From the IMG/VR virus record IMGVR_UViG_3300013104_000022, positions 31,259 through 95,258 of that record: a stretch of 64,000 bases of DNA. One strand, given 5' to 3'. The notes beneath the pieces are model-generated. The model did no database searches and was not told the origin of the DNA. It saw only the letters and a list, made by a program, of their open reading frames with translations. The stretch's first letter is position 1; each line of letters opens with the position of its first letter. Positions 1-53,797 of the stretch are shown here, one piece after another. Source of the DNA: a virus. A program made the position numbers and the translations under genes.

Positions 1-3000
1 GTTACCGGTAATACGAACGTTCTTAGAACCGGGAACCTGCGTAACCTGGAATCCAGCTTCCTTGATCTTATCGATAGCGGCCTGAGTAAGAGGTCCGGTA
101 ACGATGTCCACGGGAGTGTCGTTAGGAGTGTTCTCGATGAGACCGTTGATAGCAAGAAGTTGTTCTTGGGTTGTCGTGGCTCCGTCAAGGGTCATCACTG
201 TCGATACCGTCTCTGGCATGAGACCGTACTGCGTAAGAAGGCTACCGATCTGAGTCTCATTGAGGCCCATCTGGCTTAGCTGATCCCTCAAGCCGGTTAC
301 CCAGCCGTCACCGGCTGTCTTGGCGGCTTCCTGAGCGCCCGCGAGGTCACCGTTAGCTACAGCGTTCTGGTACGCGGCGTCCATGGCCTGATACATGCCG
401 TCACGAACGTCCGTAAGGGCTGTGTGAAGCTCTAGTCCGCCCTCGGCGGCGAGATCGAAGTTACCGGCAGAGTCAACCAGGGCGGGGTTCAATCCCTCAA
501 GAGATTGAGCAAGGTCTTGCATTTCAGAAACGAACAGAGCTTCTGCTTCACGAGCGCTGAGTGTCTTACCGAGAAGGATGTCAACGGCGTCCTTCAGGGC
601 GTTGATACGATCTTCAGCCGACGAAGCGGCGTCTGCCATGGTGGCGAGAGCGTTGTTGAAGTCCTCGTTAGAGCGCTCGGCATCCGACAAGCTGGCACGG
701 TACTCCTGTTGCATCTGCACAAGCGCCCTGTACTGCTCCTTGGCCTCCGAGAGCTTCTTGGCTTCCTTGTCGTACACGTCAAGAAGCTTCTGAGCGGCCT
801 GTGCGTTCTGGTTGTAGACACGAACGCTGTCAAGCTCCTTCTCCGTAGCACCCTTGGTGTCGTAGGCGTCAGGAATTGTAGAGTTCGACCTAATGTAGTC
901 CTTGAGCTTGCTACGGATAGCGTCTGCCGCTGAACCTCCACGGCGAAGTGCCTGAGACATAGAGTCTGCGGAAACACCGATGTCCTCTAGATACTCGCTG
1001 AAGTCGTTACCGAGGTTGCTCGGCGCGGAGAACCAGTCGAATTCCGGCTCCTCTAGGGAGTTAATAGCCTCCTTGAGGTTACTCCTCATGAGGTCTGCCG
1101 TCTCCTTGGTGGCTTCACCGAGACCGTTGAGAGATTCTGCGAGGCTGTCAACCGACGCTTCATAAGCGTCTGCCTTAGCCTTGGCATTTGCCTCAGCTTG
1201 AGCAATGCTGGCGAAGAGTCCGAAGAGAATACCAAGGGCGGTAATGGCGAGACCTACTGGACCTCCAAGGAAGCCCATGAACTTGCTTCCAAGGGTCGCT
1301 AGACCGCCTCCTGCGGCCTTAGCGCCGTTGGTGATAGTCGTGAACATCCCACCGGTTCCGGCGACGTTAGAAGCGCGCTGAAGAACCGTAAACTGTGTCG
1401 CTACTCCTGCGAGCGCTGTCTGAAGTGCGCGTACCATTCCGGCGCGGGCAAGGAGAAGACCGAGGCCCTTAGCGAGGTCGTAGATACCGAAGAACTTGAG
1501 AGCGGAAATGACGGCTAGCGTTGTGGCAAGAGTCTTGACAACACCAATTGGAAGGCTCTTGATAACATTAGCGAAGAACTCGAAGATACCAACAGTGATC
1601 TCCCAGAAGGTCTGGAAGGCCTCAGCGCCACCGTGCGCAAGGAAGTCATCGATAGATCGGATGATGGAACTGAGAGCCTTGATAAGAGACTCACCAATGC
1701 CTGACTGAGAAAGTGTGGCGAAGATGTCCGAAACGGCGGGACCGAGTTCGTTACGGATGAGCTTAACGATATTAAGCATTCCATTGATGTTACCGCTGTC
1801 CATCGCCTGGTTCTTGAACCAGCGGAAGAAGTCACCAAAGAGACCTCTCGTCTCTACGAGAAGAGGCCTGATTTCATCTAGGTACTTCTTGTACGGAGAA
1901 CCTTCCTTCTTTGCCTCTCGACTCGCCTTACGCCAAGATTCAGAAAGACTTTCGAAACCGTCAGTCGTCCACTGATTGAACTCGCGGGCCGCACTCGCAT
2001 AGTTGACAATAGTGGCGGTGATGTTCTTAGCGATCCTCCACCACTGAGCGAGGGAGTCCCCGGCGCGGTCAAGGTAGGCGGCTAGAGAACCGCTCTTGCG
2101 GCCCTCAGCGACGAGAAGAGAGAGGTTGGCGGCACCCTCACGGAAGCCACTGGATAGGCGCTCTAGGAACGGCCCAGCGGCTACAGCGACATCCTTGAGA
2201 ATGGTAGATACAAAGATCAGACCGTCACCGAGGAGCTTGATCGTACGCGCGCTACTCTTACCGATGGTGATGAAGTCGCTAGTCCATGGTCCCGAAGACA
2301 TGACGCCCGCCGCGTTGGACGCTACACGACCTAGAGACGTGGCGATAGCAGAGAGAGCGGTCTTCAATGCAGGAGCGGCGCGAGAGATACGTTCCATGTC
2401 GCCCGCTAGCTGGGAGAAGAAAGCCTCCTGCACGGCCTCTCGAACCTCGCGCCAGGCAGGACCGATCTTGACCGTTTCCTCAACAAAGTCACGGGCGGCG
2501 GGGGTGAGCTTTTCTAGTGCCTTGGCGAATGCCTCAGGATCATCACCGAAGCCCGCCTTGAGTGCCTTTCCTACGCCCCTGAAGGCCAACATGAGCGTCG
2601 AAGCCACACCCACAAGGGTAGCCAGGGCGGGGATCAGAGCAACGGCGCTACCAGCCGCGAGGCCTAGGGAGGACGCGAGGCCGAATCCTGCCGCGCCAAT
2701 AGCTCCCAGCGCCGCTACAACAGGGTTGAGCAAAGCAAGGAGCGACCCGATGATCGGGATGAGCGCGATGAACGGAGGGATAAGACGAGGACGGAAATTA
2801 CGAAGCTTGTTAAGCCAGCCGTCGAACTTGCCTAGTCGCGCATTTGCCCTATCGATATCGACAGTGAAGCGACGGAAGTATCCCGAAAGGCGTCCGTAGG
2901 CCTTACCGGTCCTGTCAACACTTACGATTCGAGACTTGTGCTCACGAGCGGTCTTGCGAATAGCTTCAGCAAGCTTCTTCTCGACGTTGGTCTGATCGTT

Positions 3001-7176: not shown

Positions 7177-7586
7177 TAGCTCTCACCCGGCCAATCCTCG
7201 TCCAGGTCTTGAGGAATCTCGAAGACGAGAACTTCGATGTGGTGGGCGTCAGAGAAATCAATGGCTCGGTCGGGGATGGATCGAATTTCGAAACTTCCCT
7301 CTACGGGGAGCTTTCCCCCGGCGTTGGGAATGCACACGAGACGATCCCCTGCTCGGATCGGCACGTCGGCGCGACAGAACAACAGTCCGTATCGGTCCTG
7401 TGCGCCCCCGGCGTTGATAGGAGCGGGAGCATCCTTACCGGGACGGATGAAGTTGAGGTCGATTCGGCATCTGACATAGCCTAGTCCATCTGTTGTGACA
7501 TCTTGCCAATCCGTCGTGGCAACACCGTCTACCTGCGTGGTCACACGACGACGCACCTTCACGGCGGAATTGAAAAGATGTTCCAT
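7176..7586 (-). CDS. Head closure (stopper) protein
   Basis: The start is ATG at 7586, 3 bp after the stop of the upstream fibre gene. A longer frame reaches 7706 but would run through that gene. The 136-aa product begins MEHLFNSAVKVRRRV and ends in an acidic tail. It has the beta-barrel-like pattern of SPP1 gp16/HK97 stopper proteins, including a DRLVCIPN strand. It would seal the portal vertex after packaging. Its gene is separated from the other connector gene (18120-18674) by about 10.5 kb of fibre genes. Confidence 0.62.
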   Translation of the reverse strand: MEHLFNSAVKVRRRVTTQVDGVATTDWQDVTTDGLGYVRCRIDLNFIRPGKDAPAPINAGGAQDRYGLLFCRADVPIRAGDRLVCIPNAGGKLPVEGSFEIRSIPDRAIDFSDAHHIEVLVFEIPQDLDEDWPGES

Positions 7587-22418: not shown

Positions 22419-22709
22419 TTAGTCCTCCAACTGAGGTCTGAGAGTATCCCACTGCGTCTCTGAAGCGGGTCGGATAAATACTTCTAGATCATTTTCGACT
22501 CTAACGAACCAACCGTTGTCGTCCTCACGAACCTCCTTGAAGTCAAGGGAAAACGCCTTGTTGGCGTGCGCCCACGCAGTACCAACAAGGTCGTCGTCCT
22601 CATCGAACTCAAAGGGTCCGATCAATACGGCCCGTTCGTTATCTCCATTTGGAATATACCAAGCCCCAAAGGGGAAGGTTTGTTCCACTAGCTCCTGCGT
22701 TACTTCCAT
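22419..22709 (-). CDS. Hypothetical 96-aa acidic protein
   Basis: An acidic alpha/beta protein with AWYIPNGDNERAVLIGPFEF and a run DEDDD. The ATG overlaps the end of the giant gene by 10 bp, so it is translated from the same mRNA. No family is recognised. The paired genes 22139-22417 and 22419-22709 could be a small two-gene accessory unit. Confidence 0.5.
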   Translation of the reverse strand: MEVTQELVEQTFPFGAWYIPNGDNERAVLIGPFEFDEDDDLVGTAWAHANKAFSLDFKEVREDDNGWFVRVENDLEVFIRPASETQWDTLRPQLED

Positions 22710-28700: not shown

Positions 28701-31700
28701 TCGTCGTCCCCGAGCACTTCCTTGAGGTGATCGATGAACTTCTGCTTTGTAACAGACTTGTCCTTATTGAACCCAACAATAGGGTTGGGATCGAGCTTAC
28801 CGAGGGCATTGCCCTTCTTGTTTAGCTCGCTCTTGAAGTTCTTACCCTGGAAGCTTTCAAGGATGTTGATAGCGTCCTGGATATCCTCAGCGGTGAAGTC
28901 GCCTCCGTCCCAGCCTTGCACACCGGTCTTCTTGGGTGCCTCCGCGCCGATCTTGTAGACCTTGGTCTGACCGATCTTGACAGCCTTGGCTTCCTGAATT
29001 GATCCATACTTCTTGAGATAAGCGACGAAGGCGGGCTTTGGCTTTAGCTCGGGGAATTCCTTCTGAGCAAGTTCCTTGAGAACTGCCTGGTTCTTGGCAA
29101 TCTTGTTATCAGGAACAGCCTTGAGACCGTAGCTGATCTGGAAGCCAGAGTGGGATTCGAGAGAGTTGAGAGCTTCAACAATCTCTGCCTTTTCGAACTT
29201 TCCTAGAGAGCCGTAGGGGACTTCGAGAAGTTCCTTCTCCCAGTCTGCGAGAATTTCCTCGCCGGGGATTGGTCCCATACCAATGTATGTGGCGGGGATA
29301 CCGTCATGCAGGTTCATCACAAGATCGTCTTGTGGAACAAGAATGTCAAAGCCGGGGGCGCTGTAGTTGAACCAGCTGGACTTTGTGAAGATTACACCCT
29401 TTACGTCATCCGTACCCATGTGTACTTGCGCACCGAGAGGCATGGATGCGAACTCGACATCTGTAGTGATAGGGGTACCCGGCTGAACTACCTCACCTGT
29501 AGCGGGAACGGTGAAGGGAACAGGGTTGTCTCCGACAGGAATGACCGAGTCTACGACAACCTTCTTGCCCTTGAGGTCAGCCTGTGTGATAGGCGCTCCG
29601 GTAGCGGTGTCTACAAGGCCGTTGTCGGAAGGAGCGAACTTCTTACCTCCAACGTCTAGAGACATGTTGGAAGGAAGTTGGGTTACCTCTTCTACGGAAG
29701 ATACATCAAGCTCAGTACCTTCCTTGATACTCTTACCGTCAGCGATACCATCTTCGTTTACGAAATCGTCGGGAGCACCATCGTTCGTCCAGTAGTCGAA
29801 CTGGCTTCCGGGAGCGTTGTAGAGAAGGTCTTCAGTAGACCACTCGTAATCGGTGTCCCCTTCTCTCCACCCGGTCTTAGTTCTCTCAAACTTTAGACTA
29901 GAACCGTCCTTCTGACCGATGATAATGATCTTATCGCCTACGGGTACATCTACGACAGACTGAGGGAAAAAGAGCTTCCAGTCCTTGGGAACGGAAGGGG
30001 GCGTCTTTTCGCCGGTAGTAAGGAAATTCTTGACACCCTTAGGCTCGGCAGGAGCGAGGTCAGCGGTTTCCGCGATGCTCTGCTGAATGCTGTTGTCGAT
30101 TTCCTCTTCGGCCGACATTGGCTCAGCCTTCAGCCAAGCATCCTTGCCTAGAGCGTCTGAAATGCCCGCCTTGAAGTTGTCCGCGTCTTCCCCTTCTAGG
30201 ACTTCCTTCTTGCCCTTTGTGATACCAGAGGTGTTGTGGAAGTATCCGTTGTGGTCGATCCACTGGCCGTTGTTTGTCTTGACAAAGTTCTTAGGAGACT
30301 TGTTAGGGTCGTGATCCACCGCAATAACGGAACCTGCTTCCAGGTCGTCTAGCTCACCGTCCGATAGTCCGTCAACCTTGAGCTTTTCAAGCTTCTCCTT
30401 GGAGAGCTTGGCGTTCTTGGCCTGGATAGCGCTATTGCCCAGAGAATCCGTCACATAGGCCTTGTTACCAAGGTAAATGCTCAAGGTCTCGTCGGATACG
30501 TTGAGGGGAAGAGCACTGTCGGGGTTCCAGGGGTCGCCGTCTCGTCGGAACCAGGAGCCGTTGACCTTCTCGAAAGAGTTGAATTCGTCCGATGTCTTAA
30601 TAAATACGAATTCGCCCTTCTTGAGAGAAGTGAGGTCGCCGTCGAACTTCTTAGCGTTCGGGATTCCCTTGAAATCTGTCTCTCCCTCTACAGGAGCGTC
30701 GGCAGGGTAAATCTGGATGTCGCTGTTCTTCCACCAAGAACCGTACTTGACGGTGCCGTTCTTGTTGGACTTGTACTTTACAGCAACCTTCTTCTTGTTC
30801 TTGGGGTCGGTGCCGATTTCAAGAATCGTACCGCCGCCTACCTCGTCACCCTTCTTGAGGTCACCGATCTTGATCTTGGTGACCTTGGGCTTCTCAGGAG
30901 CGGCCTTGGGCTGAGGAGCCTGAGACATCCAGTCCTCGGTGCTGAAGGACGTAGGCTTGGACGCAAGGTACTCTTCCTTGGAGCGAGGAGCCTTTTCTAG
31001 CTCAGCGGCGTTTCCGCCCTCTTCTGTGAAAGACTGTTCACTCTTCCAGCGCGCGCCGTCGAGGTCTACGAACGGGAAGGGGTCTACGAATGGTGCCTCT
31101 GCGGCCTTGGAAGGGGTCTCAGAGGACTTAGGAGCGCTCTTAGGTGTGGTAGCCGGGGTATCAGTCTTCTCAGCCGCTACCGGAGCCTCAGCGGTCTTGG
31201 ACTTAGCGTTGAGGGGCTTGGTGTCCTCAGGGTCGGGAATGAAGTCAGGAACGTCGTCAGCTTCCACGCTAGCGGGAGTGATCTTCTCCTGATCGCCCTT
31301 CTGACCTTCAGGGGAAATACCGGAAAGCTTGTCCTTGAGGGCAAACATGACTGCTGGGTGCACAGGAGCACCCGTCGCGGAAGTCCAGTTGCCTTCTTCG
31401 GTCTTGGTGAGAATGTCAGGATCAACTTCTTCACCCTTGTCCAGTACAAGCTGATCTCCTGCTTCGTACTGGCTGATCTCGGCGTCGAACTCTTCCTTTG
31501 TCTCGAACTTTCCGAAATCGATCTCCTTCGGAACGCCAACGTCCTGAAGTTCATCATCTTGCTCAGGGGAGGTGGCCTGTAGCTCACCGGAGTCCACCAA
31601 AGGCTGAAGCTTGTCGCTCGTGATGTCAATGTCGAGATCGGCGTGCTTCCAGGTTCCGTCTTCCTGCTTGACGAACTGAGGGGTTAGCTCAGAGTCTCGA

Positions 31701-32410
31701 AGAACCTGACCGGCTGGCATGTCTGCCAAAGAGGAAGAGACCTCAGGAGCATCCTTCTTAGAATCTTCGGAGTCGAAGACAGAGGGAACGTAGTCAGTGT
31801 CCGTAAGATCGCCGTTGAGCTTTTCAACGAGAGCTTCCATGTACACTTCGGGGAACTTGACTTCGCCCTTGGACATGAAGACGTGACCCTTACCCTCAGG
31901 GTCGATGAGGAAAGCGCGGTCGTCCTTGGTCTTAGAACGGAAGAGCTTCGATCCTTCAGGAACGTTGAATTCCTTGTCACCGATCTTGAACTTCTTCGGT
32001 CCCGACAAAGAAGAATTTTCTACCTTAGCCTTTGGCTTGGGCTGAACTACAGCCGCGCCGTTGGCTTGCATCAATTTCTTGTTTGTTCCGGAGACCGGAG
32101 TCGGAAGCATCGAACCGGACTTATCAGCGGCCTTGTCAGGTACAGGCCCAGAGGGAGTCTGCGTGGTCTTTACAGACCCCGGCTTCATCTTTCCGGTCTG
32201 GGGATCATACTTTGTACCTAGGGTACCTACACCGCCAGAGCCGCCAGAAGACGAGGCAGAACCTTCCTTAGCGGAGGCGTGCTTCTTCTTGGCACGGAGA
32301 ATAGCGTCTGCGGTAATCGGAGCACCGATGGGCAGGTCGAAGTACGCCGATCCACCAGGGGTACGGACCTTACGGATGCCCGCGAGCTTTACGAAAAACT
32401 CTTCAGTCAC
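22700..32410 (-). CDS. Giant 3236-aa virion-associated protein with kinase-like domain
   Basis: One unbroken 9.7-kb frame from GTG 32410 (TTGGAGCAC ribosome site). Residues ~12-32 hold IRKVRTPGG...PIGAPIT, shared with the upstream gene product. Up to about residue 1650 there are at least eleven degenerate units of the form P.G..(l/h)...F.K...W, separated by Pro/Lys/Glu-rich linkers. Residues ~1065-1235 hold a duplicated helical unit. Residues ~2270-2560 form a PI3/4K- or HipA-like kinase: ATP lysine in AVFKPI, catalytic NDDTHHRN, metal-binding GIDKGRAF. The last ~180 residues (GGLLSTEVRSRM, DYVFSRV, TNEVMIKD) resemble an ADP-ribosyltransferase fold, weakly. The place between portal and head genes fits a MuF-type or polyvalent protein ejected with DNA. 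Confidence 0.75.
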   Translation of the reverse strand: MTEEFFVKLAGIRKVRTPGGSAYFDLPIGAPITADAILRAKKKHASAKEGSASSSGGSGGVGTLGTKYDPQTGKMKPGSVKTTQTPSGPVPDKAADKSGSMLPTPVSGTNKKLMQANGAAVVQPKPKAKVENSSLSGPKKFKIGDKEFNVPEGSKLFRSKTKDDRAFLIDPEGKGHVFMSKGEVKFPEVYMEALVEKLNGDLTDTDYVPSVFDSEDSKKDAPEVSSSLADMPAGQVLRDSELTPQFVKQEDGTWKHADLDIDITSDKLQPLVDSGELQATSPEQDDELQDVGVPKEIDFGKFETKEEFDAEISQYEAGDQLVLDKGEEVDPDILTKTEEGNWTSATGAPVHPAVMFALKDKLSGISPEGQKGDQEKITPASVEADDVPDFIPDPEDTKPLNAKSKTAEAPVAAEKTDTPATTPKSAPKSSETPSKAAEAPFVDPFPFVDLDGARWKSEQSFTEEGGNAAELEKAPRSKEEYLASKPTSFSTEDWMSQAPQPKAAPEKPKVTKIKIGDLKKGDEVGGGTILEIGTDPKNKKKVAVKYKSNKNGTVKYGSWWKNSDIQIYPADAPVEGETDFKGIPNAKKFDGDLTSLKKGEFVFIKTSDEFNSFEKVNGSWFRRDGDPWNPDSALPLNVSDETLSIYLGNKAYVTDSLGNSAIQAKNAKLSKEKLEKLKVDGLSDGELDDLEAGSVIAVDHDPNKSPKNFVKTNNGQWIDHNGYFHNTSGITKGKKEVLEGEDADNFKAGISDALGKDAWLKAEPMSAEEEIDNSIQQSIAETADLAPAEPKGVKNFLTTGEKTPPSVPKDWKLFFPQSVVDVPVGDKIIIIGQKDGSSLKFERTKTGWREGDTDYEWSTEDLLYNAPGSQFDYWTNDGAPDDFVNEDGIADGKSIKEGTELDVSSVEEVTQLPSNMSLDVGGKKFAPSDNGLVDTATGAPITQADLKGKKVVVDSVIPVGDNPVPFTVPATGEVVQPGTPITTDVEFASMPLGAQVHMGTDDVKGVIFTKSSWFNYSAPGFDILVPQDDLVMNLHDGIPATYIGMGPIPGEEILADWEKELLEVPYGSLGKFEKAEIVEALNSLESHSGFQISYGLKAVPDNKIAKNQAVLKELAQKEFPELKPKPAFVAYLKKYGSIQEAKAVKIGQTKVYKIGAEAPKKTGVQGWDGGDFTAEDIQDAINILESFQGKNFKSELNKKGNALGKLDPNPIVGFNKDKSVTKQKFIDHLKEVLGDDDPVADIEDKADQAVVDNLASIADGIDAPTPEASESKLSKMKLPSIAEMADNIVMPDSTIAPDKNVFGKAIYKSIASGETIPAMSNAFDYYPLGTVIGSESGNTSFKKLSGGTWESSNGTIYDQSDIKALLDGQTFSSAWQVKSIPDVWGLEKSDLDAISINKPEKNEVLDVDAGDPADDKIEDVVFDDSSTKVGDKLTPAILATAPAGTKLINPELDTEEKQEKYSFTMLENGMWKANASGAEYSGEDVWVHYAANLEVGEVPNTTPDSVPETFEIVLNKATVHDIETAPLGKTLWDSQTPQGAFVKNFDSSWTVMYGDKNYNMTTASILDANIPLYHEKPEKVNSESLEGLPDGTALKVLKKNNSTHLVKHPDSWYVHNDSGEKMYPIDSPSVKNLADEGLYMYKSGTDELSAPSATPEETNKVSAGKYTTTGKVFMYVNEDGSGVYVDKSGKPKKLTPNAVQKNYDGGMNKFLGDSEAAPSLNESVLTKPAPKKAKKAEGIPDGEYFIGLPASGKATKIVVKDGTYTQFKPLTGKGVKVGGEINNSWLNDAPDGAQYAFSKYDYSLGKTISKTFTKTHGKWLNDETAEEANDTDEKYWANNTITHLGYGDPSPAQKKSLETKFAQGALLDQYATSIVPEGYSGSLLFLGGTTTGQQLADILKNTSDPVKDWKATTLKLVGLTIDNNTAVRFLKDQGVDLSDYDSKMQMGKYFHKYAQDITDGIDVEEHESNAAELFTFDGIGQAEMPLFVAANPITYDFSAKEATDWVNTASSFFGDGNIIGQHLASKGDKIQWGQHLAQGNFKEMYDLEVSGASQKGIPHVAGYLHPGYVGNKDTNKITWGAAVKGEVPAGGEVEGSWTTLNTQKWSAPELDNYLIKAQMQNPQHLSASEKRSWVQWHKNGNKSFVDSLSAKAAWRAQQGDTELSDPPVWTEGIVPAKSYDYLFDDAKYPGTQAWGDAGYQVAHDWMGDNKKNEDFLNFWKTTGASHVGYSSYVNENPYDVIGPYDKLNLVSAYFDEKEAEYQAELLKPVYSMVKKLAGGQNTTWLLRDQFERKAVFKPIAHNKGSEALFRVEVENAGNNLGLAAGFHVPESSIGQVGEDTGQIQKFIENQGDFSGIDLTTLTDTQLAQVAGHQVLDYFLQNDDTHHRNLMLDKDGNVVGIDKGRAFLAYGTYEGLAPDPKNSHMSYNMLSSDNLVYAVMIDRMRKGDFTPEQAREAYLGAMKAARRINRMSDEQVSELVREGVKNRPANKWGYKDYHYFAGKDVLDKVPNNSDELVERVLEYKADIPEKVQAMYDAVFEAAGWDKPEMPKEAIPGHTSGWQEESTVEKALATKVFGNSALHSSGSIVGGSSLVWTETDTSDKEVVKGSLKIGKFLGKQLGQTLQSLTQGSSKKVTVSTDSNASSFPDTKALKSAISAAGKNLTKNINLSPDNKNFDPAVWAAFDENAKKVDSDLEFYTPELLDSSEDVKFPSGNIVPANYVSQYHMALLHYKGQIEKVNKAKENDTPTNKADFTQYTVTPLNGKFVTYTNPKKGEQYKQLNNEKFVYVSTKGGLKTSIVNSLPDDAKALKGGWTAEGVSVDEPVSPVKVKLVASHVASGELSQSGVFKQDGGKTTKAQTGSQFEMTLPTGEVIAFRNYDYTNAFESQNNKLFFQTAGDDHQASLARIEEYLATLDVDMSGAEDPEVLYWRSMFHRVVASGAGGSKISAAREKVMKKAKEGAQKLGKSNYGVGIHDTGEAIAMAFPEEELSFYRNLANETWGTDHVAKFLSEDRHLPKYQHMNLNDGSLNTGHAYWERIDVELEELQKQGTLLAVAAKGKDDAILRYITSGGLLSTEVRSRMAPHTGASQSEDQNRGGADYVFSRVTKGNNALTSMGNLNKGKHTVFLSPEVLLHNDTYGYESDNFGATDAMQNSNYDPKKLLNMTDSTNEVMIKDTLSILDYIELMVFDKAEKRNEAIQRLKALGWEKIRGLPVEDRLVMRQNLEQAITKVKASWK

Positions 32411-46483: not shown

Positions 46484-46502
46484 GTTATCCTCCACACAGC
46501 GA

Positions 46503-46542
46503 AAACCGCCTGTCATGAAGTCTACCTCATGACAGGCGGTTT
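46503..46542 (-). terminator. Strong intrinsic terminator after surface-protein gene
   Basis: A perfect 16-bp stem (AAACCGCCTGTCATGA and complement) with an 8-nt loop, ending in TTTTC on the minus strand. It lies 13 bp after the stop at 46555. Confidence 0.85.
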
Positions 46543-46554
46543 AGGTACTACTTG

Positions 46555-47523
46555 TTACTGCTTTGCCTTCTTCCTCCCGTGTACCACGAGAGCGGTACCG
46601 GCACCGGTGATCAACAAACCTGCGACGATGAGGAACGCAATGTCCGCTCCGTCAAGACCCGTGGCGGCGAGAGTACCCGTCTCCTCCTCAGGCTGGGCAG
46701 TGACAACCGGCTTGGGAGTCTCTACGGGAGGGTTGACAACCACGGGGCAGACGACAGCGGCGTGCTCAATGCTCTCTGTCCACGCGGGGTTGTAGCTGGG
46801 ATTGCTGATCGTCTTCGTCTTCTCTCCCACAGCGGGCTTAGCCGGGACATCGATGATCTTCTCATCCCAGGCTTCCTTGACGACGACAACCTCATCGTAT
46901 GCGGGAGTCACGACGACAACCTCATCGTAGGCTTCCGTGATGATTTCCGTCCACGGTCCCTTGTCGGTCACCGTTCGAGTCTGTCCGTCGAAAAGAGCTT
47001 GCCACTGGCGCTCCCACTGAACATTCTTGCCGTGGGTACCGGAAGAGTGGAACTGAGGGCTTCCCAGAGGGGCGTCACTAAGCTCCCACGAGGTGTGGGT
47101 CTCAGGGCTGTACTTCTCCCATGAGCCGTACTCTGACCAGTCTCCCCAGCCTCGCGAACCCTTCTCACGGGTGCGCTCACGAGTGAACTTGGCGAAGTGG
47201 TACTCCGTGTGAGTGACCGCCTCGTGCTCCTTGGTCACTGCCTCGTGGTGAACGATCTTGGTCACCGCCTCGTGGTGAACAGTTGTCGTCTCTTCGGGAT
47301 GCGTCACGATGTGTGACACCTCTTCGACGGCGGGCTGATAGTCCTCGTTCTCCACGACGATTGTGGGAGTTCCCACCTCGGGATGATCCACGTACTCCGT
47401 GTAGGCGTCTGCCGCCGTACAGGTGGTCAGCGGCTCGTCTGCCGACGATGCCAGAGGCACGGACAGGCCGATTCCCACGAGAACAGCGGTAGCAAGTACC
47501 GCGAGTGTCTTTCTGAACTTCAT
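46555..47523 (-). CDS. Secreted, sortase-anchored surface protein (LAATG)
   Basis: A 322-aa protein with a complete export and anchoring layout. Residues 1-~28 are a signal peptide (KFRKTLAVLATAVLVG...SVPLASSADE). The C-terminus has LAATG, a ~22-residue hydrophobic helix and a basic tail HGRKKAKQ, a class E-type sortase signal found in actinobacteria. The exposed part carries repeats: HHEAVTK/EHEAVTH (three copies) and AYDEVVVV (two, plus a degenerate third), around a Trp-rich core (GWGDWSEYGSWEKY). It would be fixed to the host wall during infection. It has its own GGAGGGG ribosome site and terminator. Superinfection exclusion or cell-surface remodelling are possible roles. Confidence 0.85.
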   Translation of the reverse strand: MKFRKTLAVLATAVLVGIGLSVPLASSADEPLTTCTAADAYTEYVDHPEVGTPTIVVENEDYQPAVEEVSHIVTHPEETTTVHHEAVTKIVHHEAVTKEHEAVTHTEYHFAKFTRERTREKGSRGWGDWSEYGSWEKYSPETHTSWELSDAPLGSPQFHSSGTHGKNVQWERQWQALFDGQTRTVTDKGPWTEIITEAYDEVVVVTPAYDEVVVVKEAWDEKIIDVPAKPAVGEKTKTISNPSYNPAWTESIEHAAVVCPVVVNPPVETPKPVVTAQPEEETGTLAATGLDGADIAFLIVAGLLITGAGTALVVHGRKKAKQ

Positions 47524-47541
47524 GATTTCCCCTCCTCAGGG

Positions 47542-47868
47542 TTATGCGATTGGTGGTACGTCAGAGAGTGTATCTACGGCTGTAGACACTTCCTCGATCT
47601 TGGCATATGCCTTATCGAGAATCTTTCGGGTCTTCTTGTCCTCGCCGTGGCGTTTCTCGATCTTCTCTGCCATGACCACGAAGGCCTCGATCAGGTTACC
47701 CTGAAGTTCCATGGCATGAATGACACGCTCACTATGTGCTTCCAGGCGAGACTTGTACAGGACGGTGGAATTGTAGAGGTCGAGCAATTTCTTGACCTCA
47801 GCAAGCTCCACGGCACCTTGACTGTTGATCGAGATGCCGTGGAACTCTAGCTCGGGAGTGATATCCAT
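47542..47868 (-). CDS. Hypothetical helical 108-aa protein
   Basis: A mostly helical protein (ELAEVKKLLDLYNSTVLYKSR, truncated here) with a Lys/Arg-rich central helix and no cysteines. ATG at 47868 follows AAGGCACC. It is co-transcribed with the small acidic gene upstream and lies just before the surface-protein gene. No family recognised. Confidence 0.5.
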   Translation of the reverse strand: MDITPELEFHGISINSQGAVELAEVKKLLDLYNSTVLYKSRLEAHSERVIHAMELQGNLIEAFVVMAEKIEKRHGEDKKTRKILDKAYAKIEEVSTAVDTLSDVPPIA

Positions 47869-47876
47869 GGGGTGCC

Positions 47877-48341
47877 TTAGGACTTGTCATCCTCAGAGGG
47901 CTGGGGAGCGGAGTCGAGGATCGCCTTGAGAAGAGCGACAGCGGCGGCAGAGGTACCCTGAGGTGCCCCATGAAGAAGCTTGATCGTGTCCCAGTCCTTC
48001 TCAGCACGTCGGAGGTCGAGAGCGACCTGACCGGCGATAGCCATGGCGACGAGAAGCTTGCGACGAACGTCCTTGATCTCCTGCGGAACCTCGGGGTGTT
48101 CCAACACCTCGAAGATGCGGTCCACATTGGCGCGAGCAGAGTCGATGGTCTGCATTCCGATCTCGACGCGAAGCGGATCGTGCTCCTTGGAGTCCCCGAT
48201 GTGGGTGAACTCGTGCACGTAGTGCGCGGTCTCGTCCGAGATTTCCAGAGCGTCCTTGAGAAGGATCGTGACGGCTTCGGGGTCGAGCAGGAAGGCCTTC
48301 TCGCCTTCCGTCAGTTCGCGGTGTGTCGTGTTCTCAGTCAT
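47877..48341 (-). CDS. Hypothetical helical 154-aa protein
   Basis: An all-helical, acidic protein (SDETAHYVHEFTHIG, VRRKLLVAMAIAGQVALDL). No motif is recognised. It starts at ATG 48341 after a GTCAAC-class promoter with a 20-nt leader, so it heads a small transcription unit that includes 47542-47868 and probably the surface-protein gene. This layout links it to the early regulatory class seen on the plus strand. Confidence 0.52.
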   Translation of the reverse strand: MTENTTHRELTEGEKAFLLDPEAVTILLKDALEISDETAHYVHEFTHIGDSKEHDPLRVEIGMQTIDSARANVDRIFEVLEHPEVPQEIKDVRRKLLVAMAIAGQVALDLRRAEKDWDTIKLLHGAPQGTSAAAVALLKAILDSAPQPSEDDKS

Positions 48342-48361
48342 TTCATGTTCCTAACGTTGTG

Positions 48362-48406
48362 GTTGACCTGATGTGTTGAGCCTAGCAGATGGGTGACGAA
48401 TGTCAA
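48362..48406 (-). promoter_or_regulatory. GTCAAC-class promoter, minus strand
   Basis: TTGACA (48401-48406), 16-bp spacer, TGC-TAGGCT extended -10 (48379-48384), then 11 bp and GTCAAC (48362-48367). It drives the gene starting at 48341. Confidence 0.75.
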
Positions 48407-48621
48407 CCCTGTGGTTCGAAATGCCTCACGACGCGCTTCCAGGCGTACAGGCGAGCGCGATCCATGAGATCGGAGACGTTGGGCCGGGAGTCGGGGGAAG
48501 CTCCTGCCTCTTGCCACTTCTCGGCTTCGTATTTTCCGTAGGACGCCCACCACTCAGCCTGAGCCGTGTCGAAGATTTCCTGAGTGACGCGAGCCTTCTC
48601 TTCCAGAACCTCGACATCCAT
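48403..48621 (-). CDS. Hypothetical 72-aa protein
   Basis: A helical protein rich in Glu, Ala and Trp (AEWWASYGKYEAEKW) with a basic C-terminal helix ending RVVRHFEPQG. ATG overlaps the upstream stop by 1 bp. Its 3' end overlaps the -35 of the next promoter. No family recognised. Confidence 0.5.
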   Translation of the reverse strand: MDVEVLEEKARVTQEIFDTAQAEWWASYGKYEAEKWQEAGASPDSRPNVSDLMDRARLYAWKRVVRHFEPQG

Positions 48622-48950
48622 TAGAGGTAGTCCTCTACGGGGTACTCAGCATCCTTGGCATCGAGATTGTCGTTGTAGTCCTTAAGCATACCGATGGACT
48701 CGTTCACCGCTTTCAGAAGAACGTTGCGCTCCTCAAGGATGAGGTTCGCGTTGTCGAGCGCGATCTCAAAGCTCTTCAGAAGAGTGTCCATGGTTGCCGC
48801 ATTGTAGATGGGCTTGATCGGACCCTGAGCGTGCAGAACACCCTCGTTGTATGCCGTGAGCGCCTTGACACCTGCTCGGTGGATAGGCAGACGCTCGCTC
48901 GGCGGCAGGGTGGGGTTGTCTCCCTGTGCGGGGAAGATTGCTTCAGTCAT
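48621..48950 (-). CDS. Hypothetical 109-aa protein
   Basis: Start ATG at 48950 with AGAAGGAG ribosome site; a longer frame to 49142 would cross the promoter. The protein is helical in its second half (DTLLKSFEIALDNANLILEER) with an acidic end. It heads a two-gene unit driven by the promoter at 48970-49018. No family recognised. Confidence 0.52.
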   Translation of the reverse strand: MTEAIFPAQGDNPTLPPSERLPIHRAGVKALTAYNEGVLHAQGPIKPIYNAATMDTLLKSFEIALDNANLILEERNVLLKAVNESIGMLKDYNDNLDAKDAEYPVEDYL

Positions 48951-48969
48951 GGTGATCTCCTTCTGTGTG

Positions 48970-49018
48970 GTTGACCGTGATACGAGCCATGCTACACACA
49001 AAGATAGGAAGGAGTCAA
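48970..49018 (-). promoter_or_regulatory. GTCAAC-class promoter, minus strand
   Basis: TTGACT (49013-49018), 18-bp spacer, TAGCAT (48989-48994), then 13 bp and GTCAAC (48970-48975). The gap to GTCAAC is longer than in other copies. Confidence 0.65.
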
Positions 49019-49039
49019 CATCGAAGTGATGTTCGAAGA

Positions 49040-49480
49040 GGAGTAGGGATGTTCTAATGTCCAGAGAGCCTAGAGGAAGACCCTGTTTTCCCTTGAGCGG
49101 GGAGGTAGTAGGTAGATTGTTCTCGTGAGAACCCCTCCCCAAAGAACCCCCGAACCAAAAAGCAATAATATCGGATCATCCCAACACGAGTAGCGCTTAC
49201 CCTAGAAGAGCAAACGCTAAGTGTCGGCTACTCTCAACCCGTATACGTGGATCAACTGAGAGCGGCTTACCCCGCCAGTAGGGGATATCTATCGAGTTCA
49301 TGGGAGAACTCTTAACTGGCCGTCTATCGGTTAGAGAGTGAAGACGTAGAGAAGCCTCAACTGTTCATGGCAACTGTGGGAGGGTGAGTCTGGGAGCTAG
49401 AACGCTCAAGGTGACTCGGCAACCTCGATTGAAGATCACTGTAGTAGGTCTTCGTGGAGATGTCAATCTCTAGGTCTATC
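49040..49480 (+). ncRNA. Candidate structured noncoding RNA
   Basis: From about 49019 to 49582 no convincing gene exists on either strand. Inside, many short stems pair: 49099-49105/49134-49140, 49119-49132, 49188-49194/49227-49233, 49270-49284, 49294-49311, 49313-49333, 49386-49390/49413-49417 enclosing 49394-49407, 49431-49453 and 49456-49471. Three of these stems need G-U pairs that exist only if the plus strand is the RNA. A possible extended -10 (TGTTCTAAT) lies near 49049-49057. No tRNA cloverleaf, group I core or known riboswitch was recognised. Strand and ends are guesses; part could simply be unannotated regulatory DNA. Confidence 0.4.
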
Positions 49481-49582
49481 TTACATATAGGTACGGACAT
49501 TCAAGCTAGCCACTAGGAAGAGTAGTTACAGCCGTGTAGTTTTCAACACTCTCCACTAATACAACACAGGTTCTCCACCGTT

Positions 49583-50179
49583 TTACAGCTTCATGTTCCA
49601 AATCTCGTCATGCAGTACCTTGAGTTCAGGCTTGGAGTTGATTTCAACCATGTTGAGTCTTCCCTGCCCCTCGTAGCCTGGGAAGTAGCTCTTAACGGTA
49701 TGCCCGCTCATCCCTACAGTTCTCCCCGCTTCGGCGTAGCTACACCCGTCCTTCAGGTGGTACAGCGCTCGATCAAGCTGTGCTTGAGTCACGGAAGACT
49801 TGGGACGAGGACTTACAGGATTCCTAAACTTCAACACATGCTTGAGGTAGTGCTGTTTGTTTCTCTTCTTCTGCTCAGAAACACAGACGAAGCAACGGCA
49901 CCCGTATCGACGATACGACCACTCGGTCCCGTGATTGATGCCTTCCACGATTCGAGACTTTCGCTCTAGCCTGTATAGGCGAGCGGTCTCTCGGTGAGCG
50001 GCCTTGCAAAGGTCACATCTACAACCTTCACGAAGATACATGGCGTCAGAACCATGACCTCCGGATTTTTGAGTCCTCTTTCGACTTCTGTACTCCCGAG
50101 CGGCCTCTCTGTGTGCCTCTCGGCAGAGTTCACAACGGCACTTAAATGTTACATAAGTGCTGTGCGTTCCGTGCTTCAC
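49583..50179 (-). CDS. Cys-rich CRC-repeat protein with C-terminal HTH
   Basis: A 198-aa protein with three tandem units of the form HG....Y....(K/G)CRC..C..A....R.YR, each about 45-50 residues, so likely three zinc knuckles. A homeodomain-like HTH follows (SVTQAQLDRALYHLKDG, then AEAGRTVGMSGHTVKSYF). Start is GTG at 50179, 1 bp after the upstream stop. A second gene at 53501-53797 carries two more such units. It probably binds DNA or RNA; adjacency to the structured gap makes RNA or that DNA a plausible target. HNH-like nuclease activity is possible but no HNH triad is clear. Confidence 0.68.
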   Translation of the reverse strand: MKHGTHSTYVTFKCRCELCREAHREAAREYRSRKRTQKSGGHGSDAMYLREGCRCDLCKAAHRETARLYRLERKSRIVEGINHGTEWSYRRYGCRCFVCVSEQKKRNKQHYLKHVLKFRNPVSPRPKSSVTQAQLDRALYHLKDGCSYAEAGRTVGMSGHTVKSYFPGYEGQGRLNMVEINSKPELKVLHDEIWNMKL

Positions 50180-50180
50180 G

Positions 50181-50978
50181 TCAGTTCTTCTCGTGCCACT
50201 CCTTCGAGAGTAGCCACAGGTCTCGTAGAATCTCCTTGGAGACTCGCCTTAGCGCCCGCGCGTGCGCGTGACCGGCAGTAAGAGGTTCACCCGCCTTCAC
50301 CTTGCATCGGTGACAGTCCTGTTGGTGAACCGTGGCGAGAGCCGCTTCTTTGGCCGCATCATACACGGGCTTGTATGTACCATTGCATTTTACACTTGTT
50401 TCTGCAATAAGCCATACCCTCTTACGCGCCTCGGGGTTCCAATTCAGCTTCAGACCTTGGGTGCGCTTCGGTGCTTTGCCGTCTACGACTCCGTAGCCGC
50501 AGTAGGACCACAGTTCAGCTACCGTACGAGGCTTGTAGACGTGCCTGTACTGATGCCATTCTTCCTCGACGTAGAGTTCCTTGATGTAGGGGTCACCGAT
50601 GCTCGCCAGAAGGCGTGCAGTGCTCTTTGCGCCGACTCCCTTGTTGGCTTCCACCCATGGGTAGAGCACATGGTTCTTCATGCGCTTCTCCAAAGCCCTT
50701 ACAGCGGCTCTCTCAAGCCCCTGAGCGCCCTCTAGAAGCTCTTTGACGGCTAGTACGGATGGATCATCCTCCGGGAGGCCGTAGGCTCTTAGAACGCCGT
50801 CTAGGTCGTGCTCATCATGAGTCAGAGAGAAGAGACGGTTGGACAGAGAGATGCGAACGGTCTCAAGATCGCTCACCGTGCTCGCCAGAGTACCCAGAAT
50901 GGGGTCGCGAGTGCCCGAGAGGGACTGTCCGGTGTGAGCGGAGGCTACTTTCGCACTAAGAACTTGATTTACCGTCAT
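50181..50978 (-). CDS. Protein with IS110-type transposase C-terminal domain
   Basis: A 265-aa protein. Residues ~115-250 match the Transposase_20 (IS110/IS116/IS902 C-terminal) pattern: a helix-hairpin-helix GVGAKSTARLLASIGD, then RTVAELWSYCGYGVVDGKAP, then RKRVWLIAETSVK and a final helix AHARALRRVSKEILRDLW. The N-terminal DEDD/RuvC-like nuclease domain of IS110 enzymes is absent, replaced by ~110 helical residues. No terminal repeats were seen, so it is probably a domesticated nucleic-acid-binding protein. It has a consensus promoter with leaderless geometry. Confidence 0.72.
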   Translation of the reverse strand: MTVNQVLSAKVASAHTGQSLSGTRDPILGTLASTVSDLETVRISLSNRLFSLTHDEHDLDGVLRAYGLPEDDPSVLAVKELLEGAQGLERAAVRALEKRMKNHVLYPWVEANKGVGAKSTARLLASIGDPYIKELYVEEEWHQYRHVYKPRTVAELWSYCGYGVVDGKAPKRTQGLKLNWNPEARKRVWLIAETSVKCNGTYKPVYDAAKEAALATVHQQDCHRCKVKAGEPLTAGHAHARALRRVSKEILRDLWLLSKEWHEKN

Positions 50979-50984
50979 ACAGCT

Positions 50985-51013
50985 AGCATAGACGGTCTAG
51001 TTGCTCTGTGCAA
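50985..51013 (-). promoter_or_regulatory. Consensus promoter with leaderless geometry and TAGACnGTCTA repeat
   Basis: TTGCAC (51008-51013), 17-bp spacer, TATGCT (50985-50990), 6 nt, ATG at 50978. The spacer and -10 contain the inverted repeat TAGAC-G-GTCTA (50989-50999), a candidate operator. Confidence 0.75.
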
Positions 51014-51014
51014 C

Positions 51015-51428
51015 CTAGGTTCGGGCGGCTCGGTACTGTAGAGCGGCGAGTAGGGACGACAGAGAGCGCTTCCAGTTCTCGTCCATGTCCAGAATTAGGT
51101 GACAATCGGACGAATTGAACTCACGTCGGGCGTTTTCAGCCGCTTCCTTGGCCTCTTTGACCATTTTTGGGTTCAACGCGCCGGGGAATCGGGGATGAGA
51201 GACCCAGATAAGGTACCCGCGAAGCCCCATGAGGTGATTCTTTTGGCTAAATGTCTTGACATCGGGGACGATAATCAGTCCAGACGGAGTATCAAGCATG
51301 TTCATAAGATCGTCCCCAGGCACAACCAAAGCGTCGTCCATCGTTTCGAGGAAGGGGACGACGCTTTGGATAGAGATAGGGGAACCTGCAAGCCCGAGAA
51401 GGACGTTGCCGTATTCTGAATCGCTCAT
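51015..51428 (-). CDS. Diverged dNMP-kinase-like protein without P-loop
   Basis: A 137-aa protein. The segment GLIIVPDVKTFSQKNHLMGL...GYLIWVSHPRFPG parallels VVVTGVRFQNELDMI...TSVWISRPGTEP of the dNMP kinase at 45851-46483, strand for strand. The N-terminal GLAGSPISIQS stands where a P-loop would be but lacks GK. It may be a degenerate, non-catalytic paralogue or a regulator. ATG lies 6 nt after TATCAT (51435-51440), the leaderless geometry. Confidence in the homology is moderate. Confidence 0.5.
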   Translation of the reverse strand: MSDSEYGNVLLGLAGSPISIQSVVPFLETMDDALVVPGDDLMNMLDTPSGLIIVPDVKTFSQKNHLMGLRGYLIWVSHPRFPGALNPKMVKEAKEAAENARREFNSSDCHLILDMDENWKRSLSSLLAALQYRAART

Positions 51429-51449
51429 GCTCTAATGATAAAGCATAAA

Positions 51450-51638
51450 TTAGATTTCAGGTACTAGAACTACGTCGATCCAGGAGTCTTTCTGCACAAG
51501 AACAAGAATTGTTCCTGTTTCATCGGTGAAAGCAAGGCCTCCACCGTCGAGAGGCTTGATATGAGCCGCCTCAATGAGGGAAATAGAGGGTTCTGCCTCT
51601 TCGGTAAAGGCTTTTGATCTCAGTTGCCACTTAGTCAT
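51450..51638 (-). CDS. Hypothetical 62-aa protein
   Basis: A small beta-rich protein (FTDETGTILVLVQKDSWIDVV) in a run of small minus-strand genes. A ribosome site AGGAGAAC precedes the ATG at 51638. No family recognised. Confidence 0.48.
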   Translation of the reverse strand: MTKWQLRSKAFTEEAEPSISLIEAAHIKPLDGGGLAFTDETGTILVLVQKDSWIDVVLVPEI

Positions 51639-51653
51639 GAGTTCTCCTAGAGG

Positions 51654-51845
51654 TCAGGGACGCCATTTGGTGCCTCGAAGATGATAAATCATCACTCCAA
51701 ACGCCGTACACAGGAGAAAGAACATTCCTGAGATGACGAAGAAGGGGCTGAGAAGGAAGAACCCAACTCCGATGATCCACAGGGAAGCGAGCGCGGCGAA
51801 AACCGTTCCCACGGTGGCCCACGTTGCCTTAGCGCGATCACTCAC
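51654..51845 (-). CDS. Small membrane protein, two TM segments
   Basis: A 63-aa protein with two hydrophobic helices (WATVGTVFAALASLWIIGVG; PFFVISGMFFLLCTAFGVMI) and a basic C-terminus LRGTKWRP. It overlaps the next membrane gene upstream by 8 bp, so they form a pair. Both may act at the host membrane, for example as exclusion or lysis accessory proteins, but nothing specific shows this. Confidence 0.6.
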   Translation of the reverse strand: MSDRAKATWATVGTVFAALASLWIIGVGFFLLSPFFVISGMFFLLCTAFGVMIYHLRGTKWRP

Positions 51846-52071
51846 CTTTCTCTGCCTTTAGTTCTGTGGCTACCCACACGATGAAACCGCCGACAAGTAC
51901 TGCGGCGATAGCAGAGAAACCGAGGGTGGCGAGAAAGAGCCAGATAAAGAACGGGAGGAAGATAAACCCCCACGCCACGTCGTTAAGAGGAGCGCCGGGA
52001 ATGATCCACCACGCGATCAACAAAATCTGGCTCAGCAAGAACACTGCTGACACAATTCTCAGAGTTTTCAT
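51838..52071 (-). CDS. Small membrane protein, two TM segments
   Basis: A 77-aa protein. Two long hydrophobic stretches (residues ~5-25 and ~33-65) are joined by a short polar turn (PGAPLNDV) and followed by a charged tail ATELKAEKGE. It starts 1 bp after the nucleotidase stop and is coupled to the next membrane gene. Confidence 0.6.
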   Translation of the reverse strand: MKTLRIVSAVFLLSQILLIAWWIIPGAPLNDVAWGFIFLPFFIWLFLATLGFSAIAAVLVGGFIVWVATELKAEKGE

Positions 52072-52072
52072 T

Positions 52073-52654
52073 TCAGTCCTTATCTGCGAACTTGCTCATT
52101 ACCTGAATGTAGTCGTACACGTCTTCCCAGTCGTCCGCTCTCCACCCAAGCTCGTCCTGGTTGTAGGGAGCGTCGAAGATGATGAAGGGGCGTTCCGCCT
52201 CACGGAAGGCCTGGATGTTGCTTGGTGCGTCATCGATGTAGATGTCCGCGTAGAGGTCCGTCTTCTTTCCGAGGAAAGCGAGGTCTCGGTACGGGATGTT
52301 CACGGTATCCAGCCACTTAGCTGTGTCCGCTACCACCTTACCATGCTGACCGTTCTTCACAAATCTCTTGGTGATGACGCGAATGTGGTGTCCCTCATCG
52401 CTGAGTCTCCACAGCGTCTCGGAAGCGCCTTCGATCATCTGAAGACCGGCGTACAGGCCTCGGTCTACCGCTTCCGTGTGGAAGGTCACGAAGTCCTGTC
52501 CGAGTTCGGTCCAGTCCGAGAAGTTGTAGTGCTGGATTTCCGGCAGGTACCTTGTAACCTCTTCAGGCGTGTACCCGCGATCCAGGGCGATAGACTGGCG
52601 TAGTCCATCGATGTAACCGGCGCTCACGCCGTCAAGATCGACTCCAATAATCAT
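52073..52654 (-). CDS. HAD-family 5'(3')-deoxyribonucleotidase
   Basis: A 193-aa HAD phosphatase. Motif I is IIGVDLDGV at the N-terminus, motif II RVITKRF (S/T in T), and motif III/IV the acidic pair in DIYIDDAPSNIQAF. The layout and length match the NT5C/YorS-like nucleotidases of phages. It likely removes phosphate from pyrimidine deoxynucleotides, adjusting pools with the dNMP kinase. Its promoter is divergent from that of the plus-strand early genes. Confidence 0.82.
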   Translation of the reverse strand: MIIGVDLDGVSAGYIDGLRQSIALDRGYTPEEVTRYLPEIQHYNFSDWTELGQDFVTFHTEAVDRGLYAGLQMIEGASETLWRLSDEGHHIRVITKRFVKNGQHGKVVADTAKWLDTVNIPYRDLAFLGKKTDLYADIYIDDAPSNIQAFREAERPFIIFDAPYNQDELGWRADDWEDVYDYIQVMSKFADKD

Positions 52655-52677
52655 GTGTGTAGTCCTTTCCTATCGTG

Positions 52678-52706
52678 ACTGTAACATCCTTTGACAACAA
52701 CGGCAA
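52678..52706 (-). promoter_or_regulatory. Promoter of nucleotidase gene
   Basis: TTGCCG (52701-52706), 17-bp spacer, TGT-TACAGT extended -10 (52678-52683), 24 bp before the ATG at 52654. It overlaps the divergent plus-strand promoter, so the two probably compete. Confidence 0.65.
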
Positions 52707-53284: not shown

Positions 53285-53514
53285 AAATCTCCACTGAAGT
53301 TTCCAAGACCACTATCCTCGCCACGGACGCGGCTACCCTGCATGACGCGATGTATTTCGTCCTGGAAGCGGCAGACGAACTAGGGGATGAAGTAGATGTA
53401 GAAGTGAAGTTTCGGATTCTCCCCGGAGAAGAAGGAGAAAGAAGCATTTATTACGGTGTTACCGTGCGCGGTACTGCTGTCCATCCCCAGGAGCAAGGAA
53501 ATGACAATGAGTGA
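53281..53514 (+). CDS. Hypothetical 77-aa protein
   Basis: A small alpha/beta protein (TLHDAMYFVLEAADELGDE, then VDVEVKFRILPG) starting at a GTG that overlaps the upstream stop. No family recognised. It overlaps the next gene by 14 bp. Confidence 0.55.
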   Translation: MKISTEVSKTTILATDAATLHDAMYFVLEAADELGDEVDVEVKFRILPGEEGERSIYYGVTVRGTAVHPQEQGNDNE

Positions 53515-53797
53515 CGACAAGATCGTAAATTTCACCCCCAGCGGCAAGCCCGTCAAGCACGGAGGGTCCGGAACGGCTTATGCCAACTATGGGTGCCGCT
53601 GTGACGAGTGCAAGGAAGCCAACTCGAATCGAGCGAAGAGGCGAAGACAAGAGAGAGTCACAGAAGAACCTCCTGAGTCTGCGCACGGCAAGTACTCCAC
53701 CTACTCCAACTGGGGATGCCGCTGTGAGGCGTGTACTCAGGCGGGGTCCGAACACAACAAGAAGAACTACGAGGCAAGAAAGTTGGCGAACGCATGA
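53501..53797 (+). CDS. CRC-repeat zinc-knuckle protein
   Basis: A 98-aa protein with two units of the HG....Y....GCRC..C..A motif (KHGGSGTAYANYGCRCDEC and AHGKYSTYSNWGCRCEAC). The same unit occurs three times in the 49583-50179 product, so they are related. The linker is very basic (RAKRRRQER), fitting nucleic-acid binding. It lacks the C-terminal HTH of its larger relative. Start is ATG 53501 or 53507. Confidence 0.65.
   Translation: MTMSDDKIVNFTPSGKPVKHGGSGTAYANYGCRCDECKEANSNRAKRRRQERVTEEPPESAHGKYSTYSNWGCRCEACTQAGSEHNKKNYEARKLANA

What the first reader, a model, noticed from the sequence alone, without database searches (positions are those of the whole stretch)
49040..49480. Hairpin-rich gene-free region next to CRC-repeat/HTH and IS110-like genes
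This is the only long gene-free stretch in a dense genome. Nine or more short stems can be drawn, three with G-U pairs consistent with a plus-strand RNA. Just beside it are a multi-knuckle nucleic-acid-binding protein and a protein with the IS110 C-terminal domain. IS110 enzymes use a noncoding bridge RNA from their flanks, so an RNA-protein system derived from such an element is an appealing but untested idea. It does not match any structured RNA I recognise.
Basis: partly seen in the sequence, partly recalled or inferred. Interest (0 to 1): 0.7.

Follow-up and report, generated by a model that had tools for sequence, protein, structure and literature searches.

The report
Gap beside a phage TIGR-TasA gene
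The "IS110-like" gene next to this phage's gene-free gap is really TasA, the RNA-guided DNA-binding protein of the recently described TIGR-Tas systems, but its guide RNA is not in the gap: one perfect guide hairpin lies about 73 kb away in the same phage, and the gap looks like an ordinary promoter-bearing spacer.

Summary
The gap is real: 48951-49582, 632 bp, the longest gene-free stretch in the window. The hairpin claim is weak. Short stems occur at about chance frequency, and the plus strand folds no better than shuffled sequence (z 0.13). The minus strand is modestly structured (z -2.1), and the two promoter-like sites in the gap both read minus. No relative of the gap was found, so covariation could not be tested.

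The neighbour at 50181-50978 is not an IS110 transposase. It matches NCBIfam TIGR_Tas_endo (190 bits, cut-off 100), and its predicted fold matches TasR best (9mty). It has no nuclease domain, so it is TasA. Of 58 related phage loci, 56 carry guide hairpins on the tasA strand (CCA-N9-CG-N4-CCA-N9-CG inside a stem; 344 sense, 5 antisense).

A covariance model of these units finds nothing in the gap, one canonical unit elsewhere in this phage (record 7243-7292, E 3e-4), none in four relatives lacking TasA, and scattered intergenic units in a related phage with TasA. Best reading: a TIGR-TasA system with scattered guides; the gap is a transcription-control spacer.

The parts
48951..49582 (.). Gene-free gap (full extent), between the tasA-CRC gene pair and the next minus-strand gene
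   Evidence: No convincing coding frame; longest noncoding run in the window; no sequence or structural relative found
49438..49466 (-). Putative promoter P1, TTGACA-17-TACAGT; would start a minus-strand transcript near 49431
   Evidence: Motif TTGAC[ACT]-16..18-TANNNT: 14 of 19 sites in the record lie in the 10% that is noncoding
48989..49018 (-). Putative promoter P2, TTGACT-18-TAGCAT, about 40 nt upstream of ATG 48950
   Evidence: Same motif enrichment
49150..49280 (-). Most structured stretch of the gap on the minus strand; includes a 13-pair hairpin at 49191-49219 extended by a 7-pair stem at 49181-49227
   Evidence: z = -2.84 for this 131-nt stretch; plus strand about 0; no homolog found with a single-sequence covariance model
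   Evidence: NCBIfam NF052498.1 E 5.3e-56, 190 bits vs cut-off 100; profile hits to TasR 9mty 6e-29 and TasH 21kl 3e-15; AlphaFold2 model pLDDT 90.6, best fold match TasR
49583..50179 (-). CRC-repeat zinc-knuckle protein with C-terminal HTH, 198 aa, starts one base after the tasA stop (same transcription unit)
   Evidence: PHROG 14857 HTH DNA-binding 1.5e-17, PHROG 4234 HNH endonuclease 1.5e-12; no tblastn match in phages at E 1e-5
51015..51428 (-). 137-aa gene upstream of tasA, no family; occupies the place of the usual tasA partner gene (phrog_4604) but is not that gene
48621..48950 (-). 109-aa gene immediately downstream of the gap on the minus strand, probably driven by P2; unknown function

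Best explanation
The window belongs to a large actinophage related to Microbacterium phage Magritte. It encodes TasA, a nuclease-free TIGR-Tas effector, with a CRC/HTH zinc protein directly behind it. TasA should bind small stem-loop guide RNAs carrying two 9-nt spacers flanked by box C (CCA) and box D (CG), which by analogy with TasR/TasH pair with the two opposite strands of a DNA target (established for TasR/TasH, inferred here). The guides of this phage are not in the gap. They are encoded as scattered single stem-loop units in other intercistronic spaces; one is visible at record position 7243-7292, outside the window. The gap itself is a spacer between two minus-strand transcription units. 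It carries two promoters reading minus and a modestly structured leader or untranslated RNA, with no demonstrated tie to TasA. Without a nuclease, TasA most likely binds and bends or blocks a target, acting on transcription, replication or recombination of a competing or own DNA (inferred).
For: TasA identity: NCBIfam, solved-structure profile hits, model and Foldseek, conserved domain alignment with no nuclease domain. Guide unit family: 344 sense against 5 antisense units in 58 tasA loci, spacers 9 nt in 322 (A) and 331 (B) of 344; stems covary, although unit selection required pairing. Spacers are hypervariable between near-identical mycobacteriophages. In the window's phage: one fully canonical unit, 31.2 bits, E 3.4e-4. 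Four TasA-less relatives, 479 kb in total, give none at E <= 0.01. A related phage with TasA (G009, terminase 51% identical) has scattered units, all of those read lying in intergenic gaps. Gap without units: best hit 4.4 bits, partial. Promoters in the gap.
Against: Only one canonical unit is seen in the window's own phage, in a 95-kb fragment, so 'scattered guides' rests mainly on relatives. The covariance model was trained on units that fit the consensus and could miss divergent ones; L064 has a tasA and only weak units. The usual partner gene (phrog_4604, 56 of 58 viral loci) is absent from the record, so the system may be incomplete or decaying. Promoter calls are pattern matches. No transcript data exist.
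Confidence: 0.78

Rival explanations
1. The gap is itself a divergent or decayed TIGR stem-loop array read from the minus strand, downstream of tasA-CRC as in several relatives (for example Morrissey), with altered box motifs.
For: Position and strand fit: arrays lie upstream and/or downstream of tasA on its strand. Two perfect 7-bp stems in the gap enclose loops of 28 and 32 nt; 32 nt is the canonical loop length. Minus-strand structure exceeds shuffles.
Against: No CCA-N9-CG/TG unit on either strand. Covariance model at most 4.4 bits in the gap, against 31 bits for the distant unit and 16-21 bits for the weak units of L064. The phage's own canonical unit suggests that its TasA still uses the standard boxes.
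Confidence: 0.07
2. The gap encodes an independent structured small RNA or a regulatory leader on the minus strand, started at P1, unrelated to TasA.
For: P1 and P2 fit a motif strongly enriched in noncoding DNA; minus-strand fold z -2.1 overall and -2.8 for 49150-49280; no match in Rfam at E up to 5, so it would be a new RNA.
Against: Comparable or stronger folds occur elsewhere in the same phage, much of it coding; no homolog found; no terminator-like site reported in the gap.
Confidence: 0.3
3. IS110-derived bridge-RNA recombinase system: the neighbour is a transposase and the gap carries its bridge RNA.
For: Distant fold similarity of the protein to IS621/ISCro4 (Foldseek E 0.008-0.09); PHROG labels the family 'transposase'.
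Against: Protein is 265 aa without the N-terminal DEDD RuvC domain. The TIGR_Tas model far outscores IS110: 5e-56 for the window protein, while NF033542 matches only 3 of 7 family members, best E 0.015.
Confidence: 0.02
4. The gap is plain non-functional spacer, for example the remains of a lost gene, apart from P2.
For: Stem counts at chance; z-scores not exceptional for this genome; no conservation anywhere found; many stops in all frames.
Against: Two promoter-like sites on the same strand; minus-strand fold beats 99 of 100 shuffles over 441 nt.
Confidence: 0.35

Closest known systems
TIGR-TasA systems with stem-loop arrays (Faure et al. 2025, PMC12045711)
   Same: Nuclease-free Nop-domain protein; [quoted passage not shown] found in tailed phages
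   Different: In this phage no array adjoins tasA; a single canonical unit is seen about 73 kb away in the record; a CRC/HTH protein follows tasA and the usual partner gene phrog_4604 is missing
Mycobacteriophage cluster A1 'transposase' genes (e.g. BPBiebs31 gp74; PHROG 4285)
   Same: Homologous TasA, about 46% identical to the window protein over the aligned part
   Different: They keep a four-unit array between phrog_4604 and tasA; the window phage does not
IS110 family (IS621) bridge-RNA recombinases
   Same: Distant structural similarity of the RNA-binding C-terminal region
   Different: No DEDD RuvC domain and no bridge RNA found
Box C/D snoRNPs (Nop5/Nop56-58)
   Same: Nop fold; guides flanked by C and D boxes; guides can be dispersed through a genome
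   Different: No fibrillarin or K-turn element known here; the TIGR systems tested so far target DNA

Membership tests
TIGR-Tas (TasA type) | Nop-domain Tas protein | tested here: met
   NF052498.1 190 bits vs cut-off 100; TasR/TasH profile and fold matches
TIGR-Tas (TasA type) | No nuclease domain fused (TasA rather than TasH/TasR) | tested here: met
   265 aa; model shows coiled coil plus Nop domain only; Pfam finds no nuclease
[quoted passage not shown]
   One canonical unit at record 7243-7292, spacers 9 and 9 nt; outside the window
TIGR-Tas (TasA type) | Array of units adjoining the tas gene | tested here: not met
   No unit in the gap, in window 48300-51500 or elsewhere in the window at significance
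TIGR-Tas (TasA type) | Array transcribed and processed into guide RNAs bound by Tas | not testable with these tools
   Needs RNA-seq and pull-down
TIGR-Tas (TasA type) | RNA-guided binding of both strands of a DNA target | not testable with these tools
   Targets unknown; an 18-nt target of one mycobacteriophage unit gave only two environmental contigs, not informative
IS110 transposase | N-terminal DEDD RuvC-like domain | tested here: not met
   Absent from the sequence and the model
IS110 transposase | IS110 family model match | tested here: not met
   NF033542 is not listed for the window protein at E <= 1; 3 of 7 family members match, best E 0.015
IS110 transposase | Bridge RNA in an element flank | tested here: inconclusive
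   No known RNA family in the gap, but no dedicated bridge-RNA model was searched
Known structured RNA (Rfam) for the gap | Match to any of 4227 families | tested here: not met
   None at gathering score, none at E <= 5

The most novel reading that the evidence does not exclude
In this lineage of large actinophages TIGR guides have left the array: TasA is served in trans by single snoRNA-like guide genes scattered through intercistronic spaces, and the minus-strand RNA of the gap is one more, non-canonical, TasA- or CRC-bound RNA.
Probability: 0.06. Interest if true: 0.8.

Novelty: new variant of a known kind. Interest (0 to 1): 0.55.

Why it matters
It turns a supposed transposase fragment into the effector of a newly described RNA-guided family, in well-studied phage groups with laboratory hosts. 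Natural TIGR targets and the way arrays emerge and change are listed as open questions in the founding paper. The cluster A1 mycobacteriophages found here carry near-identical tasA genes and mostly conserved array stems but very different spacers, and grow on M. smegmatis mc2 155, so both questions can be tested directly. Guides scattered through a genome, if confirmed, bring TIGR closer to the snoRNA layout that the founding paper contrasts it with.

Tried and rejected
Known RNA families in the gap: none. tRNAs or tmRNA in the gap: none. Tandem or dual-repeat TIGR array in the region: none. Lenient box C/D unit scan and covariance model on the gap: none. Sequence relatives of the gap in phages and in related records: nothing beyond short chance matches. 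Single-sequence covariance model of 49150-49280 against 13 records: only itself. Close relatives through the CRC protein, tasA as a single query, a DNA 20-mer from the gap, and the 48621-48950 protein in viral contigs: none. Spacer targets among fetched loci and for one A1 unit in viral contigs: no exact hit among the loci, and two environmental contigs for the single scan, about what chance would give. The weak model hit at record 6156-6197 (E 0.11) was set aside: it lies in an ORF and lacks the second spacer. The apparent gene-free first 3.3 kb of the window in my gene call is the tape-measure gene running off the end, not a gap.

Full report
WHAT IS THERE. The window is record positions 31259-95258 of a 95,258-nt viral record. 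The phage is related to Microbacterium phage Magritte (portal 61% identical) and to several IMG/VR contigs. The gap runs from 48951 to 49582; genes on both sides read minus. It is the longest noncoding run in the window.

IS IT UNUSUALLY HAIRPIN-RICH? Only weakly, and not on the strand proposed. The plus strand of 49040-49480 has z = 0.13; the minus strand has z = -2.11. Stem counts are near those of random sequence. In 355 sampled windows of the same phage, both strands each, 28 reach z <= -3; the gap's best, on the minus strand, ranks 17th. The best hairpin (49191-49219) has three G-U pairs that exist only on the minus strand. A promoter motif TTGAC[ACT]-16..18-TANNNT occurs 19 times in the record, 14 of them in the 10% that is noncoding by a simple gene caller; two lie in the gap, both on minus. 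No Rfam match. No relative by sequence or by a single-sequence covariance model, so covariation cannot be tested.

WHAT THE NEIGHBOUR IS. Homologs of the 'IS110-like' protein occur in 84 phage records, 76 of them mycobacteriophages. Fetching six of them showed tandem hairpins with ~30-nt loops beside each gene. A published system fits: TIGR-Tas (PMC12045711). Direct tests agree. NCBIfam TIGR_Tas_endo scores 190 bits for the window protein against a cut-off of 100, and matches all seven members of the alignment. A profile search finds TasR 9mty at 6e-29 and TasH 21kl at 3e-15. The AlphaFold2 model (pLDDT 90.6) matches TasR first (E 3.8e-10), then TasH, then IS621 weakly. There is no nuclease domain, so it is TasA; the 'endonuclease' in the NCBIfam name is a family label, and nuclease activity is not expected.

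THE GUIDE UNITS. A viral scan with the family alignment gave 58 loci. A scan for stem-CCN-spacer-NG-linker-CCN-spacer-NG-stem found 344 units on the tasA strand and 5 on the other. Spacer lengths are 9 nt in 322 (A) and 331 (B) of 344; box C is CCA in 323 and box D CG in 322 at each position. The scan required pairing and rewarded CCA and 9-nt spacers, so the covariation statistics and part of the consensus follow from selection; the strand asymmetry does not. A covariance model (R1) finds one unit in this phage, record 7243-7292 minus, E 3.4e-4, between two co-directional genes. It finds none in the gap (best 4.4 bits, partial). In 14 records, R1 hits at E <= 0.01 occur in 9 of the 10 with TasA and in none of the 4 relatives without TasA (Magritte was not among the tblastn matches listed by organism). 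G009, a relative of the window's phage by its terminase (51%), has TasA and units spread over tens of kilobases; those I read (L107, L108) all lie in gaps between predicted genes. G008 has scattered units too, some in its tRNA cluster.

HOW IT PROBABLY WORKS. Shown here: the effector's identity, one canonical guide unit in the same phage, and the absence of such a unit in the gap. From the literature: TasR and TasH bind 36-nt guides whose two spacers pair with opposite DNA strands, and stem-loop units of a TasA system are processed and bound (PMC12045711). Inferred: this TasA binds its scattered units and holds or bends a DNA target. The target is unknown.

LIMITS. One unit in a 95-kb fragment is thin support for scattered guides in this phage itself. 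The partner gene phrog_4604, next to tasA in 56 of 58 viral loci, is missing from the record. Divergent units could escape the model; L064 has only weak ones. I read the main text only; the supplementary tables of the TIGR paper, which may list these phage loci, were not available, so novelty of the related-locus observations is stated with that caution.

Noticed in passing
Record G000:7243-7292 minus (L002 7243-7292), outside the window: A fully canonical TIGR stem-loop guide unit: GGTGGGGGT-CCA-AGATTATCT-CG-TGAC-CCA-CAAGACCCA-CG-ACCCCCACC, between two co-directional genes, about 73 kb from tasA.
   Followed up: yes
23 viral loci among L069-L106, and Gordonia phages LonelyBoi L027 2941-2972, Spooky L028 3003-3035: Guide units lie inside the conserved TasA coding domain as in-frame inserts: 42 units in 23 loci, 41 of them with box C in the same codon phase. 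The tasA mRNA would then be its own guide precursor. Not mentioned in the main text of the TIGR paper as far as searched.
   Followed up: partly
Cluster A1 mycobacteriophages, L051-L066 3650-3960: At matched array positions stems are 80-98% identical in three slots (53% in the fourth), spacers only 36-48%, while tasA is 97.6% identical at the nucleotide level: guides change far faster than the rest of the locus.
   Followed up: partly
Upstream of tasA in 56 of 58 viral loci (e.g. L021 1687-2148): A conserved partner gene of unknown function (phrog_4604) sits directly upstream of tasA with guide units around it; no Pfam or NCBIfam match above cut-off. It is absent from the window's record.
   Followed up: partly
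PHROG 4285 and GenBank annotations of mycobacteriophage A1 genes (e.g. NC_042327.1 gp74): Annotated as 'transposase' or hypothetical; they are TasA proteins.
   Followed up: yes
G009 (L107, L108), G008 (L109-L112): Large phages with guide units scattered singly or in small clusters in intergenic gaps; in G008 some sit among tRNA genes.
   Followed up: partly
window 22700-32410 minus: A 3236-aa open frame between the head-maturation protease gene and the portal gene; related phages have shorter or partly similar giant proteins there.
   Followed up: no
window 53501-53797 plus; L002 5864-6286 minus: The CRC motif of the 49583-50179 protein recurs in another small protein and at the C-terminus of an HNH-like protein, suggesting a mobile DNA-binding zinc module.
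   Followed up: partly
window 46985-47226: 77% DNA identity to gp70 of Microbacterium phage Hyperion, inside the 46555-47523 gene; the only nucleotide similarity of 46500-52700 to a sequenced phage group found at E 1e-5.
   Followed up: no
L002 171-6465: Fourteen tRNA genes predicted in the part of the record left of the window; Magritte has a similar tRNA cluster followed by a Ro-like RNA-binding protein gene.
   Followed up: no
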